DNA of 32,542 nucleotides from Leptotrichia sp. oral taxon 879 str. F0557. GTDB taxonomy: Bacteria > Fusobacteriota > Fusobacteriia > Fusobacteriales > Leptotrichiaceae. Below the pieces are notes generated by a model. That model was not told the origin of the DNA. It saw only the letters and a program-made list of their open reading frames with translations, and made no database searches. Position 1 is the first letter of the stretch. Each line of letters opens with the position of its first letter. Made by a program: the position numbers and the translations under genes. Below are positions 19,114-23,975 of the stretch, piece after piece. The stretch spans positions 12,389 to 44,930 of the forward strand of contig NZ_KI271352.1 of NCBI RefSeq assembly GCF_000469385.1, read 5' to 3'.

Positions 19114-20937
19114 ATGATTTATAGTGAAAAAGAGATACAGAAATTAATTGATAATTTAGATATTGTTCAAGTGATTGGAGAATATGTAAATTTAAAAAAG
19201 GCAGGTTCAAATTATAAAGGCTTATCTCCTTTTAAAGATGAAAAGACTCCATCTTTTACAGTCAGCCCAGTAAAAAATATTTTTAAGGATTTTAGTACAC
19301 AAATTGGCGGAAATGTAATTTCGTTTTATATGAAAATCAATGATGTTAGTTTCATTCAGGCAGTAGAAGAGTTATCTCGAAAGTATAATATTCCACTCAA
19401 GAAAAATAGGGAATATAGGACAATCAATCAGGAAATTGAAAGAAAAAAGGCTCTAAACAAGGAGTATTACGAAATAATGAATGAAGCCCAGATATTTTTT
19501 AGAGAAAATATTGAAAAATATCCTGAAGCATTAGAATATATGAAGGAACGTAATTTCTCTATTGAAGAAATCAGAAAATTTGGGATAGGATTTGCCAATA
19601 GTTCAAGAGATGAATTATTTCAGCATTTATTAAAAAAAGAATTTCCAGAAGAAAAGATAATAGAATTAGGACTTGTCAAAAGAAATGAAAATGGTGAAAT
19701 TTATGATAGCTTTAGAAATAGAGTGATTTTTCCAATTTACAATATAAATTCTCAGATTGTAGGATTTGGGGGACGTATAATTGAAAAAAATACTAATTTG
19801 CCTAAATATCTAAATTCTCCAGATTCGCCTATTTTTAAAAAAGGAAATGAACTTTTTGGAATAAAGCATCAAGGAGAAAATATTAGGAAAAAAGGCTTTG
19901 TGATGCTGATGGAAGGCTATCTTGATGTACTTACAGCCCAAAAGAATGGTTTTGAAAATGCAGTTGCAAGTCTTGGAACTGCACTTACTGAGGAACAGGC
20001 ACAACTTTTAAAAAAATATACAGATAAAATATTGATTTCATATGATAACGATGAAGCTGGGAAGAATGCCATAATAAAAGCAGGATACATTTTAAAAAAA
20101 TATGATTTTGATGTAAAGTGTCTAGTTATAGATGGAAATGAGAAGGATCCTGATGAGTTCTTGAGGAAAAATGGTAAAAAGGCATTTATAGAAGTTGTAA
20201 AGAAATCAGAAGAAATTTTTGATTTTTTAACAAAGGAAGCTTCAAAAGATTTGGATTTGAATGACATAAGTGGAGAAAGAAAATTCATTGAAAGATTAAA
20301 ACCATTTTTTTCAAATGTTAAAAATAATCTTAATAAAAATCTATATTTACAAAGATTATCAGCCAATTTTGGAATTAATGAATTTGTTTTAGAAGAGGAA
20401 CTCAAAAATTTGCCAAATAAAACTTCTAAAATAAAAAAAAGAAGAATCTATGAAAATCAGAAAGTTCAATACAAAAAGCAAAAAAGAGACTTATATATTG
20501 AACTGGAAGAACAAACACTTATATATATATTGGAATTTTATAAATCAGAAAAGGAAAAATGTATAGAACTTCTAAATAAAGAATTTAGCCATCCGATTTT
20601 TAATGAACTAATAGAAAAATTGAAAGATATAGATTTTGATATAATGAAGCTTGATAAAATTGATATTAGTGAAGAAAATAGGGAGATTGTAACAAACTTG
20701 AAGTTACGGGCAGATAATGACATTAAGGATAAGGAAATTTATTTTAGGGAAATTTATTCTGGCTGGTTTGAGCGTGAAATAGATGAGGAAAGACAAAAAA
20801 CTGAGGAAGAAAACGATAGAATTAAGAAAATTGAATTAAAAAAAATATTATCAAAATTAAAAAATATTAATAAAATTAGTGAAATAGAAAAATTATATAA
20901 TGAATTTATATTGATAAGGAGACCGAATTATGTCTGA
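19114..20937 (+). CDS. dnaG: DNA primase, lacking the canonical zinc ligands
   Basis: Makes RNA primers for replication together with the DnaB helicase. The 607-residue protein has the CHC2-type N-terminal domain (1-100), the RNA-polymerase core with Toprim fold (MEGYLD with Glu267 and Asp271; YDNDEAG with Asp311 and Asp313) and a helical C-terminal helicase-binding region (about 460-607). The N-terminal domain keeps its frame ([15 protein letters not shown], 34-48; [10 protein letters not shown], 64-73), but all four zinc-ligand positions are replaced. CPFH becomes Ser38-Pro-Phe-Lys41 and the CxxC becomes Asp59-Phe-Ser-Thr62. I recall the same kind of loss in Bacteroidetes primases. The ATG has ggagg 12 bases ahead. 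It overlaps rpoD by eight bases. Confidence 0.97.
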
Positions 20938-22108
20938 TAAAAAACAAAATTTAAAAAATAGTCTCGCAAATTTTATAAAACAGGCACGAGAGCAAAAAGT
21001 TGTAAGTTACGAAGAAATAAATTCTGTTTTATCTATCGGATTTTCAACTGAAAAAATCGAGCAGTTAATAAAAAAACTGACTGATGACGGTGTTCAAATC
21101 GTAGATACTATAAAGGAAAAAGAGGATTTATTAAAAGTTCCTGATTCCATAGAAGCTATCGAAAAAATGGAAATATCGGATTTTGAAGATTCGCATGATG
21201 AATTTGTAGAGAGTGAAATCGACGATTCGGAAGTGGATAAACTATTACAGACAGATTTGTTAAAAATGGCAGAAAGTATGGATGTAGATGAACCAATAAA
21301 AATGTATTTGCGTGAAATTGGACAAATTCCACTACTTAGCTATGAAGAAGAAATCGAATATGCTCAACGAGTTTTAAATGGCGAGGAGGAAGCAAAACAG
21401 AAATTAATAGAGTCAAATCTAAGGCTTGTTGTCAGTATCGCAAAAAAACATACAAATCGTGGCTTGAAAATGCTGGATTTAATTCAAGAAGGAAACATGG
21501 GGCTTATGAAGGCTGTGGAAAAATTTGAATATGAAAAAGGATTCAAGTTTTCGACTTATGCAACTTGGTGGATTAGACAGGCTATAACACGTGCAATTGC
21601 AGATCAGGGAAGAACAATAAGAATACCTGTTCATATGATTGAAACAATTAATAAAATCAAAAAGGAAAGCCGTATTATTTTACAGGAAACTGGAAAAGAG
21701 CCAACAGCAGAGGAATTGGCTGAAAAGTTAGAATTACCAGTAGAAAAGGTAAAAAGTATTTTGGAAATGAATCAGGATCCGATTTCACTTGAAACTCCAG
21801 TTGGAAGTGAAGAGGATAGTGAACTGGGAGATTTCGTGGAAGATGATAAATTTGCGAATCCTTATGACGCAACAACAAGAGTTCTATTGAAGGAACAGCT
21901 TGATGAAGTATTAAAAACATTAAATGAGCGTGAGGAAATGGTGCTTAGATATAGATATGGACTAGATGACGGTTCTCAGAAAACTCTTGAAGAGGTGGGG
22001 AAAATCTTTAATGTAACAAGGGAACGTATTAGACAGATTGAGGTAAAAGCATTAAGAAAATTAAGACATCCAAGCAGAAGAAAAAAATTGGAAGATTACA
22101 GGAGCTAA
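20930..22108 (+). CDS. rpoD: Primary sigma factor (sigma-70/SigA)
   Basis: Housekeeping sigma factor that directs RNA polymerase to -10/-35 promoters. The 392-residue protein has a short region 1.1-like N-terminus (about 1-65), an acidic linker, region 1.2 (about 120-155, [22 protein letters not shown]), region 2 (158-228, with [18 protein letters not shown] and the -10 reading segment [10 protein letters not shown]), region 3 (238-300) and region 4 (326-385, ending in the helix-turn-helix [18 protein letters not shown]). Length and content fit the group 1 sigma factors of Gram-positive and fusobacterial type. It begins inside dnaG (eight-base overlap) with aaggaga just upstream, so translation is probably coupled. 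The stop codon lies in a terminator-like stem. A divergent paralogue follows. Confidence 0.98.
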
Positions 22109-22130
22109 AGTTGTTATTTAGCTCCTTTTA
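22100..22130 (+). terminator. Hairpin at the rpoD stop codon
   Basis: aggagctaaa (22100-22109) pairs perfectly with tttagctcct (22117-22126) around a 7-base loop, followed by ttt. The rpoD TAA is in the left arm. The T-run is short, so partial read-through into the sigma paralogue and nif3 genes is likely; I saw no clear promoter in the 58 bases that follow. Confidence 0.6.
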
Positions 22131-22184: not shown

Positions 22185-23135
22185 ATGTTAAAAAATGTTT
22201 TTGAAGATATAAGAAAAAAAGGAAGTTTCAGTTTTGAAAAAATTATAGAAAATCATACGATGAATGATGATGAATTTTTTGAATTTTTGAAATTTATCCA
22301 TTTGGAAAATATTCCAGAGGTTAGGACTTCAACTGATGGAAGTGATTTTATCGTATTAGAAGATGAGAATATTTTTATTGAAGAAAAGGATATGATAAAG
22401 TCTTATTTAGAAGATATAAAGAGAAAATACGAGGAACTTGAGAAAAAAAGTAAAAATGAGAAAGAAAGGGAAGAATTAATTGATAAATATTTAAAAATTG
22501 CAGTAAAAGAAAGCTTGCTTTATTCAAAATACGGATTTTCGTTTTTAGATACAGTTCAGGAAGCTACACTTGGAATTATGTCAGGTTTGAATTATTATGA
22601 TGAAATTATGAAAATAACAAAAGAGCCTGAATTTTTTGTGAAAAATTTTGCTGTAAAATATATTTTGGAATTTCAGAAGGAACTGCTAAAAGATATTAAA
22701 TCATCTGAATTATCATATATTTTATATTTAAAAGTAAAAGTTGACAGGAGTATGGGATTTTCAATGGATGAAATAAGTAAACAGATGAATGTTTCAAAAG
22801 AATATATTGAACAGCTTGAAAAACTATTTGACGAGGTAGAGCCTGAGGAGCTGATTGGAAATTCACAGATATTGGAAAAGGCTGATAAAATTACACAAAT
22901 GTATATTCTTGAAAATATTCCTAAAAAACTAAATTATCTAGATGAGCAGATTTTAGTTATGACTTATGGACTGGATGATAAAGTGTATACAGAAAAGGAA
23001 ATTGCAAAATCTTTAAATATTGCTAGTCACAATGTAAATATTTTAAAGGAAAAGGCACTTAATAAGTTATCAATTGACTTAATGAGAAATGATTTTGTAG
23101 AAAATAATGAAGAGGCAAATTATACAATAAATTAA
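22185..23135 (+). CDS. Degenerate sigma-70 family paralogue
   Basis: A 316-residue protein that aligns by eye along most of RpoD. Residues 98-134 (LIDKYLKIAVKES, then FLDTVQEATLGIMSGL) match region 2.1-2.2 ([30 protein letters not shown]). Residues 190-225 (MGFSMDEISKQMNVSKEYIEQL) match region 3. Residues 253-295 (DEQILVMTYGLDDKVYTEKE, then NILKEKALNKL) match region 4. The -10-melting and recognition segment ([13 protein letters not shown] in RpoD) is absent and replaced by FFVKNFAVKYILEFQ, without the aromatic Tyr/Trp-Trp. The region 4 helix keeps its frame but loses the Arg-rich recognition residues (RERIRQI to SHNVNIL). So it may bind core polymerase yet not read normal promoters. It has an aaggggaa site and lies 77 bases after rpoD. 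Function unknown; an anti-sigma-like or modulator role is inference. Confidence 0.75.
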   Translation: MLKNVFEDIRKKGSFSFEKIIENHTMNDDEFFEFLKFIHLENIPEVRTSTDGSDFIVLEDENIFIEEKDMIKSYLEDIKRKYEELEKKSKNEKEREELIDKYLKIAVKESLLYSKYGFSFLDTVQEATLGIMSGLNYYDEIMKITKEPEFFVKNFAVKYILEFQKELLKDIKSSELSYILYLKVKVDRSMGFSMDEISKQMNVSKEYIEQLEKLFDEVEPEELIGNSQILEKADKITQMYILENIPKKLNYLDEQILVMTYGLDDKVYTEKEIAKSLNIASHNVNILKEKALNKLSIDLMRNDFVENNEEANYTIN

Positions 23136-23162: not shown

Positions 23163-23975
23163 ATGAAATTATGGGAAATAATAGGAGAGCTTCACACAAT
23201 CTTTAATCCTAAAATTACTGAAAACTGGGATAATGTCGGACTTCTTGTGGGAGATAACACAAAGGAAGTCAATAAAGTGTTATTTTGTCTGGATGTAACA
23301 GAAAAAGTTGTAAAACAAGCTGTAGATAACAATGTAGATTTGATAATTTCACACCATCCAGTTATTTTTTCAGGTCTAAAGAAAATTACAAATGAAACTG
23401 TACATGGAAGAAAGTTATTAAAATTAATAGAAAATAAAATAGCGGTTTATTCAATTCATACTAATTCTGATTTTGCAATTAATGGGTTAAATGACTTTAT
23501 AATGGATAAACTAAATCTAGATGGGGGAAAAATAATTTTTAATGAACACGAATTTGAAGACTATAATCCAATAAAAAATAAGGTGGAACATGTACATAGC
23601 GGACTTGCAAGAATAAAGATATTAAATGAGGAAATGAGACTGGAAGACTTGCTTGAAAGAATAAAGGATTCTCTTGGAATAAGCTATGTAAGGTATGTTG
23701 GCAATAAAGATGCATATGTACGAAAAATTGGACTTGTTACAGGTGGTGGAAGTTCATTTATGTATGAAGTGGCTGATAAAATTGATGTGTTTCTCACAGG
23801 AGACTTGAAGTACCACGAGGCTTTAGATGCTTTAGAAGAAGGGCGTATTTTAGTTGACATTGGACATTTTGAAAGCGAATACTTGTTTGTAGATATGATG
23901 GAACAGAAAATGGCGAAATTCTTTAATGGAGAAATGATTCGACATTTTGAAGACGAGATATTTAAGTTAGGATAA
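23163..23975 (+). CDS. Nif3/DUF34 family metal-binding protein
   Basis: A 270-residue member of the Nif3-like family (often labelled GTP cyclohydrolase 1 type 2, a name with weak support). Visible metal ligands are the His64-His65 pair in ISHHPVIFSG, His99 with Asp103 in IHTNSDFAINGLND, and His235 with Glu239 in GHFESEY, which in known members hold a two-metal centre in a toroidal hexamer. The protein lacks the extra central domain (about 370 residues) found in many Firmicutes homologues. It lies 27 bases after the sigma paralogue, in the place where other bacteria have rpoD-trmK-nif3, with no trmK seen here. A molecular role is not established; metal-insertion functions have been proposed. 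Confidence 0.88.
   Translation: MKLWEIIGELHTIFNPKITENWDNVGLLVGDNTKEVNKVLFCLDVTEKVVKQAVDNNVDLIISHHPVIFSGLKKITNETVHGRKLLKLIENKIAVYSIHTNSDFAINGLNDFIMDKLNLDGGKIIFNEHEFEDYNPIKNKVEHVHSGLARIKILNEEMRLEDLLERIKDSLGISYVRYVGNKDAYVRKIGLVTGGGSSFMYEVADKIDVFLTGDLKYHEALDALEEGRILVDIGHFESEYLFVDMMEQKMAKFFNGEMIRHFEDEIFKLG

What the first reader, a model, noticed from the sequence alone, without database searches (positions are those of the whole stretch)
22185..23135. Full-length sigma-70 paralogue next to rpoD with a destroyed -10 recognition segment
By-eye alignment with the adjacent RpoD runs through regions 2, 3 and 4: [50 protein letters not shown], and [25 protein letters not shown]. Yet the segment that melts and reads the -10 box is lost and the region 4 helix has no Arg-rich recognition face. 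The core-binding part of region 2.2 (QEGNMGLM to QEATLGIM) is the best preserved. This pattern suggests a protein that still docks on RNA polymerase but does not select promoters like a sigma: a sigma antagonist, a polymerase-holding factor or a factor for unusual promoters. It probably arose by tandem duplication of rpoD. The role is inference.
Basis: partly seen in the sequence, partly recalled or inferred. Interest (0 to 1): 0.75.

Follow-up and report, generated by a model that had tools for sequence, protein, structure and literature searches.

The report
Sigma factor relative that lost promoter-reading
Next to its main transcription sigma factor this Leptotrichia carries an old, phylum-wide sigma-factor relative that kept the parts expected to dock on RNA polymerase but has lost, more than once in the phylum, the parts that read promoters, so it may be a sigma-shaped brake or helper rather than a sigma factor.

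Summary
The ORF is real (window 22185-23135, 316 aa) and is a diverged sigma-70-family protein. It is not a Leptotrichia oddity. Orthologues occur in 96 of 98 Fusobacteriota genomes examined, usually just after rpoD and nearly always directly before a Nif3/DUF34 gene. Some lineages keep a sigma with an intact melting segment. One single loss of that segment is rejected on an RpoC+RpoD tree (AU p 7e-6); the best tree needs four, and fewer (at least two) cannot be excluded. The gene stays under purifying selection; in Leptotrichia the replacing segment is itself constrained (dN/dS 0.08), so this is repurposing, not decay. Tandem duplication of rpoD is neither shown nor excluded. Best mechanism (inferred): X docks on core polymerase without reading promoters and competes with RpoD or holds polymerase idle. 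No binding was tested, and some reduced-genome relatives lost even the docking glutamine. New variant of a known kind.

The parts
20930..22108 (+). rpoD, primary sigma factor (392 aa), the adjacent relative
   Evidence: regions 1.1, 1.2, 2, 3, 4 found; TIGR02393 404.1 bits, cut-off 354
22101..22129 (+). Terminator-like hairpin GGAGCTAAA...TTTAGCTCC + TTTT overlapping the rpoD stop codon; may partly separate rpoD and X transcripts
   Evidence: Read directly from sequence, similar stems in other Leptotrichia; the tool's terminator scan, which needs 5 T in 8, found none
22185..23135 (+). X: diverged sigma-70-family protein, 316 aa
   Evidence: AlphaFold2 pLDDT 84.4, pTM 0.83; Foldseek PDB hits at E <= 0.001 are sigma subunits
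22185..22370 (+). N-terminal helical domain (residues 1-62), region-1.1-like, net negative
   Evidence: Helices 2-12, 17-23, 28-41; profile link to group B N-domain E 2.5e-5, and that to RpoD N-domain E 1.4e-5, direct link weak (E 0.08); charge -9 for residues 1-66
22533..22592 (+). Region 2.2 docking motif (residues 117-136, GFSFLDTVQEATLGIMSGLN)
   Evidence: Gly398 and Gln406 equivalents invariant in 80 of 80 X; dN/dS 0.066
22629..22751 (+). Helix (residues 149-189) replacing regions 2.3/2.4; no -10 reading residues, but conserved
   Evidence: Trp433/Trp434 equivalents are Asn/Phe; dN/dS 0.080; helix 149-189; residues 97-168 fit E. coli sigma70 378-447 at 1.4 A over 70 residues
22905..23078 (+). 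Region 4 (residues 241-298), recognition helix without the Arg/Gln -35 contacts
   Evidence: PF04545 E 9.4e-9; -35 contact positions 2% kept, 4.1 44% kept; dN/dS 0.039 and 0.053
23163..23975 (+). Nif3/DUF34 gene, persistent downstream neighbour of X
   Evidence: PF01784 E 1.8e-76; follows X within 238 bp in 77 of 77 measurable loci of the 80-sequence set (without the mis-assigned G018 row)

Best explanation
X is a vertically inherited sigma-70-family paralogue of Fusobacteriota that in Leptotrichiaceae has become a promoter-blind, sigma-shaped protein. Shown here by computation: sigma fold, loss of the residues that melt and read the -10 element and contact the -35 element, retention of the region 2.2 motif (Q406 equivalent in 80 of 80) and of region 4.1, purifying selection, and more than one loss in the phylum. 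Inferred: it binds core RNA polymerase at the sigma docking sites (beta-prime coiled-coil through region 2.2, beta flap through region 4), and, having no promoter to bind and an acidic region-1.1-like N-domain that could sit in the DNA channel, it competes with RpoD or keeps polymerase in a non-initiating state, so tuning the free polymerase pool.
For: Profile and fold matches to sigma factors. In Leptotrichiaceae 1% of -10 contact cells kept against 92% of region 2.2 docking cells; by whole segment 2.2 40%, 2.3 1%, 2.4 10%, 4.1 44%. dN/dS median 0.07, lowest in 4.1, 4.2 and 2.2. Family in 96 of 98 genomes. A single loss of the melting segment rejected, AU p 7e-6; best tree four changes, 5-95% range of bootstrap trees 3-4. 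Published analogy (passages seen): T4 gp33 is a sigma-4 mimic on the beta flap that reads no DNA and represses, and a gp55-gp33 fusion competes with sigma70 (PMC2988020); sigma 2.2 binds the beta-prime coiled-coil, and acidic sigma 1.1 occupies the polymerase channel (PMC4598750).
Against: No binding data. The lists of core- and DNA-contact residues are recalled, and were fixed after I had seen the alignment. Region 2.2 could be kept for folding. In g2/g7/g10 the Q406 equivalent is D, N or A (by eye) while the gene persists. The region-1.1 link of the Leptotrichia N-domain to RpoD is indirect. Region 4 of the window protein still passes the Pfam model of a DNA-binding region. One g14 genome has no X although rpoD and Nif3 are in place, and in one Leptotrichia an insertion element splits X, so it is not indispensable everywhere.
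Confidence: 0.45

Rival explanations
1. X is still a working alternative sigma with unusual promoters, possibly needing an activator that supplies DNA contacts and melting; in group B lineages (g18-21, g24, g26, and g27 by its sequence) this is very likely true, in Leptotrichia less so.
For: Group B keeps YATWWI-type melting residues (W433 and W434 equivalents in 10 of 10) with changed -12 readers (Q437 to K/R, T440 to I); 30 of 42 Fusobacterium-like forms keep both Y430 and W434 equivalents; region 4 of the window protein passes the Pfam cut-off and its 4.2 segment stays positively charged on average in Leptotrichiaceae (+2.4).
Against: In Leptotrichiaceae the W433, W434 and F427 positions are mostly N, F and P and only 1% of contact cells are kept; region 3.2 finger not recognisable (5% kept).
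Confidence: 0.22
2. X no longer works on RNA polymerase; the sigma fold has been reused for another task, perhaps together with Nif3/DUF34, the gene right behind it.
For: X precedes Nif3 even where it has left rpoD (g7, g10, g11) and overlaps it in 53 of 77 measurable loci; the g2/g7/g10 forms have lost the docking Gln. B. subtilis DUF34 YqfO affects over 400 genes (PMC8670212, passages).
Against: sigma-70, dnaG and DUF34 genes are common operon neighbours anyway (PMC8469502 Table 3, passage), so linkage may be inertia; G065 has an X-like gene but no Nif3 hit; G018 has Nif3 without X. Co-transcription was not tested.
Confidence: 0.25
3. X is a decaying duplicate on its way out.
For: Faster evolution than RpoD (dN/dS 0.07 against 0.026); not found in G018 and G001, interrupted in G077, in pieces in G057.
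Against: dN/dS within the genus 0.03-0.23, median 0.07; segments 2.1 to 4.2 at 0.04-0.17 except the short insert after 2.2 (0.34), with the 1.2/linker and tail at 0.27 and 0.33; open full-length frame in 91 of 98 genomes (3 more are cut by contig ends), even in genomes of 1.2-1.4 Mb.
Confidence: 0.04

Closest known systems
Primary sigma factor RpoD/SigA (group 1 sigma-70)
   Same: Domain order, sigma-2 and sigma-4 fold, region 2.2 motif, region-1.1-like N-domain, adjacent gene
   Different: No -10 or -35 reading residues, no recognisable region 3.2 finger, evolves faster
Alternative sigma factors (groups 2-3: RpoS, RpoH, SigB/F/G)
   Same: Second sigma-70-family gene beside the primary one; group B orthologues have intact melting residues and an HTH
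   Different: Alternative sigmas lack region 1.1 (PMC4598750, passage); X falls outside RpoD/RpoS in the tree and is degenerate in most genera examined
Phage T4 gp55/gp33 split sigma
   Same: Diverged sigma-2 on the beta-prime coiled-coil and a sigma-4 mimic that reads no DNA (PMC2988020, passages)
   Different: X is one chromosomal protein with an N-domain, no clamp-binding tail known; gp55 still recognises promoters; homology of X to gp55/gp33 not tested
Sigma-like proteins reused for other tasks (e.g. YlxM, an HTH protein of the signal recognition particle; recalled, no call)
   Same: Sigma region-4-like HTH put to non-sigma use
   Different: X keeps the whole sigma-2/sigma-4 plan

Membership tests
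Sigma-70 family protein (homology) | Significant match to sigma-70 profiles in region 4 | tested here: met
   PF04545 35.1 bits, cut-off 24.1
Sigma-70 family protein (homology) | Match in region 2 | tested here: met
   Not by Pfam r2 for the window protein, but by NCBIfam stretches 71-139 and 84-140, below those models' own cut-offs, by fold 97-168 on sigma70 378-447 at 1.4 A, and in 40 of 58 members by PF04542 at E <= 0.01
Functional sigma factor | Region 2.3/2.4 residues for -10 melting and reading | tested here: not met
   1% of contact cells kept in 21 Leptotrichiaceae; W433/W434 are N (S once)/F. Residue list recalled
Functional sigma factor | Region 4.2 -35 contacts (R584, E585, R586, R588, Q589) | tested here: not met
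   2% of cells kept. Residue list recalled
Functional sigma factor | Core-binding motif of region 2.2 | tested here: met
   Motif kept: Q406 equivalent 80 of 80. The motif was tested, not binding
Functional sigma factor | Binds core RNA polymerase and directs initiation | not testable with these tools
   Needs biochemistry
Group 1 (primary) sigma | Region 1.1 | tested here: inconclusive
   Group B N-domain to RpoD N-domain E 1.4e-5; Leptotrichia N-domain to group B 2.5e-5; directly to RpoD 0.08; Fusobacterium-like group none
Tandem duplicate of rpoD | Groups with fusobacterial RpoD | tested here: inconclusive
   Free tree puts X outside RpoD+RpoS (90/87); joint clade not rejected, AU p 0.164
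T4 gp55/gp33-type pseudo-sigma | Docks on beta-prime coiled-coil and beta flap without -35 reading | not tested
   Analogy from PMC2988020 passages only

The most novel reading that the evidence does not exclude
Fusobacteriota carry a chromosomal, promoter-blind sigma: a sigma-shaped subunit that occupies the sigma docking sites of RNA polymerase and plugs its DNA channel with an acidic N-domain, acting as a phylum-wide dosage brake or hibernation factor. It evolved at least twice, most likely three or four times, by loss of promoter reading from one ancestral alternative sigma that already had a second, DNA-independent job.
Probability: 0.28. Interest if true: 0.85.

Novelty: new variant of a known kind. 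Interest (0 to 1): 0.6.

Why it matters
Sigma factors are defined by reading promoters. A family in which promoter reading was lost more than once while the gene was kept under selection suggests a sigma function that does not need DNA. Orthologues beside rpoD in Fusobacterium-like genomes make this directly testable in a laboratory strain. Such proteins can match general sigma-factor models (the first Fusobacterium-like member scores 47.7 bits on TIGR02937, cut-off 42.9), so they may be labelled sigma factors and be miscounted.

Tried and rejected
Rejected: chance similarity; decay; Leptotrichia-only gene; a single loss of promoter reading (AU p 7e-6, and 1e-6 for f1 with the degenerate f2 genera, RpoC+RpoD). 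Not settled: tandem duplication of rpoD; region 1.1 identity of the Leptotrichia and Fusobacterium-like N-domains; whether g25 and the Fusobacterium-like clade lost it separately (p 0.052) and whether f1 and f6 did (p 0.42).

Errors found and corrected. (a) For genome G018 I first took the ORF after rpoD (L052) as X. It is Nif3 (confirmed), and no X was found there. It was in the X set (one row of 81; group D 43 rows). Counts quoted here come, without it, except segment charges (the Leptotrichiaceae figure is not affected); the odd -777 gap for L052 is this error. Alignments A1-A4 and both structure models did not contain it. (b) In one search the test of g25 plus the Fusobacterium-like clade gave p 8e-5 only because the G018 RpoD row was left outside the group; repeated properly with RpoD alone it is not rejected (p 0.57 with G018 inside, 0.64 without it), nor is a single loss on RpoD alone (p 0.106). 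I therefore added RpoC and lowered my earlier 'at least four losses' to 'at least two, best tree four'; interest went from 0.62 to 0.60 for this. In one search the G001 row was dropped because my trimming motif was absent.

Led nowhere: papers on this gene. Searches gave none that I recognised from their (capped) listings; in PMC11005410, PMC1924603 and PMC12153356 I saw only the passages. Genome-wide scan outside the phylum: the one genome-contig scan returned one locus, so presence in other phyla is open. Viral fold library: phage sigma factors among the hits, two matches at E <= 0.001, one of them unnamed. VIA Z-scores of 7.8-10.2 are in the range that unrelated helical proteins can reach, so I rely on the sequence evidence first.

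Full report
What is there. The ORF at 22185-23135 encodes 316 aa, between rpoD (20930-22108) and a Nif3/DUF34 gene (23163-23975, PF01784 E 1.8e-76). The genome is a Leptotrichia: the protein is 99% identical to one in L. hongkongensis. I call the protein X. The Pfam region 2 profile finds two sigma genes in the own genome, rpoD and a 273 aa sigma elsewhere; it does not find X.

Homology. Region 4 passes Pfam's cut-off. NCBIfam RpoD-type models match in up to three stretches, below their own cut-offs. BLASTP against the adjacent RpoD gives E 1e-8 at 22% identity. The 60 PDB sequence matches shown (of 67) are named sigma factors. An AlphaFold2 model from 58 orthologues has pLDDT 84 and pTM 0.83. 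The 28 PDB chains at E <= 0.001 are, by title and chain, sigma subunits or models holding one, and residues 97-168 fit E. coli sigma70 378-447 at 1.4 A over 70 residues. Whole-chain TM-scores are low (0.18-0.24 of the query in the list), as the domains sit differently. A Fusobacterium-like orthologue modelled separately gives the same picture (118 chains at E <= 0.001, of which the 50 best are listed).

Distribution. I examined the 98 Fusobacteriota genomes offered by the genome search. X was found in 96: 80 full frames after rpoD or before Nif3 in the first set; 11 more full frames found by profile or by position before Nif3 (G064, G097, G065, G082, G083, G091-G096); 3 cut by contig ends (G013, G086, G089); and 2 broken (G077 by an element with an ORF that looks TnpB-like by eye; G057 in pieces). 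It was not found in G001 (0.8 Mb, also no Nif3 hit) and G018 (rpoD directly followed by Nif3). The profile also catches RpoD itself, so for G097 (E 6e-17) the call rests on position as well. Of the 80, 73 lie within 741 bp downstream of rpoD (71 measured, L014 and L070); the 7 of genus g25 do not (six lie 1.4-3.7 kb away, the seventh, G061, is on another contig). Nif3 follows within 238 bp in 77 of 77 measurable loci (no Nif3 in the stretches held for L019, L083, L099), overlapping in 53, 37 of these by 4 bp. Where X has left rpoD (g7, g10, g11) it is still before Nif3. Leave-one-genus-out profiles recover each of the 80 (weakest E 2e-37 for a nominal 1000 sequences). The g2/g7/g10 forms look unlike sigmas but match the Leptotrichiaceae profile over 257 of 281 columns (E 3.8e-16), and the g11 forms over 279 of 313 (E 6.9e-21).

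Anatomy across the family (19 RpoD rows as reference). Group B (10 sequences) keeps the melting aromatics (Y430, W433, W434 equivalents 10 of 10) but has changed -12 readers (Q437 to K/R, T440 to I); one f4 orthologue looks the same. Group C (g25, 7), group D (Fusobacterium-like, 42) and group E (Leptotrichiaceae, 21) have no Trp at 433; W434 is kept in 7 of 7 C, 32 of 42 D and 0 of 21 E. The Q406 and G398 equivalents are invariant in 80 of 80. Using recalled residue lists, -10/extended -10 cells kept are B 44%, C 20%, D 19%, E 1%; region 2.2 docking cells B 70%, C 40%, D 75%, E 92%; -35 helix cells B 40%, C 3%, D 10%, E 2%. By whole segment in E: 2.2 40%, 4.1 44%, 2.3 1%, 2.4 10%, 3.2 5%. So in Leptotrichia the two segments expected to dock on polymerase are the best kept and the DNA-reading ones are gone. 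Group C fits this less well (docking cells 40%). E. coli numbering was checked on the K-12 RpoD sequence.

Selection. Within the genus (12 genomes, 66 pairs; 53 pairs with dS 0.05-1.5 used) median dN/dS is 0.070 for X (range 0.03-0.23) and 0.026 for rpoD (52 pairs). By segment, from all pairs: 4.1 0.039, 4.2 0.053, 2.2 0.066, 2.3/2.4 replacement 0.080, N-domain 0.080, 2.1 0.086, linker 216-240 0.12, region 3-like 0.17; 1.2/linker, insert and tail 0.27-0.34. The replaced segment is therefore under constraint.

History. An RpoD tree (46 fusobacterial rows and E. coli) puts group B genera as early branches of f2, with g26 (f3) and g27 (f4) also intact; degenerate forms sit in f6, in f1, in g25 and in the Fusobacterium-like clade; fewest changes four. 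RpoD alone cannot reject fewer losses (one loss p 0.106; g25 with the Fusobacterium-like clade p 0.57-0.64), and the rejection was an artefact of a mis-set group. With RpoC added (27 genomes, 1614 columns; G001 has RpoC alone), f1 and f2 are starred clades, the best tree again needs four changes, the 5-95% range of bootstrap trees is 3-4, and starred branches alone force two. One single loss is rejected (p 7e-6), and so is f1 with the degenerate f2 genera (p 1e-6); g25 plus the Fusobacterium-like clade is borderline (p 0.052), f1 plus f6 not rejected (p 0.42). So there were at least two losses and most likely three or four, on the assumption that promoter reading is not regained. The seven intact X tested form one clade (100/99), outside RpoD plus RpoS (90/87); a clade of X with fusobacterial RpoD is not rejected (p 0.164). 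X is old and looks vertically inherited; whether it is a duplicate of rpoD is open.

N-terminal domain. Group B's matches the RpoD region 1.1 part (E 1.4e-5) and Leptotrichia's matches group B's (E 2.5e-5), but directly to RpoD only E 0.08 and for group D nothing. It is acidic in the window protein (-9 over 66 residues). By the review PMC4598750 (passages), sigma 1.1 is found only in group 1 sigmas and its acidic domain sits in the polymerase channel.

Mechanism. Shown by computation: a sigma fold without promoter-reading residues, under selection. Inferred: docking on core polymerase, then competition with RpoD or a non-initiating complex. T4 gp33 and the gp55-gp33 fusion show that such a thing can work (PMC2988020, passages). 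Against: no binding data, and g2/g7/g10 have D, N or A at the docking glutamine by eye. The Nif3 link could mean another job, but DUF34 genes commonly sit in operons with sigma-70 and dnaG genes (PMC8469502 Table 3, passage).

Verdict. The larger finding is the phylum-wide family with more than one loss of promoter reading. I found no paper on it in searches, which see a limited library and list only their best hits.

Noticed in passing
L113:1552-4430 (G077): In one Leptotrichia species X is split between the N-domain and the rest by an element carrying an ORF (417 aa) that looks TnpB-like by eye.
   Followed up: partly
window 22101-22129: Hairpin plus short T run overlapping the rpoD stop codon, with similar stems in other Leptotrichia; could set the rpoD:X transcript ratio.
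   Followed up: partly
L052:2794-3597 (G018): One g14 genome (91% complete) has rpoD directly followed by Nif3, and no X was found: perhaps a natural deletion.
   Followed up: yes
L119:2480-3337, L148:2246-3061, L147:2240-3049, L116:2494-3336, L117:2527-3384: X orthologues in g10, g7 and g2 genomes so diverged that they no longer look like sigma factors and have lost the Q406-equivalent glutamine.
   Followed up: partly
L086:3591-6155 (g25): PTS EIIC and serine dehydratase genes lie between rpoD and X, while X and Nif3 stay overlapped.
   Followed up: no
L094 (G046 C83), L112 (G052): Further RpoD-like or sigma-like genes (358 aa, 59% identical to RpoD; 273 aa) in two genomes; extra sigmas or contamination.
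   Followed up: no
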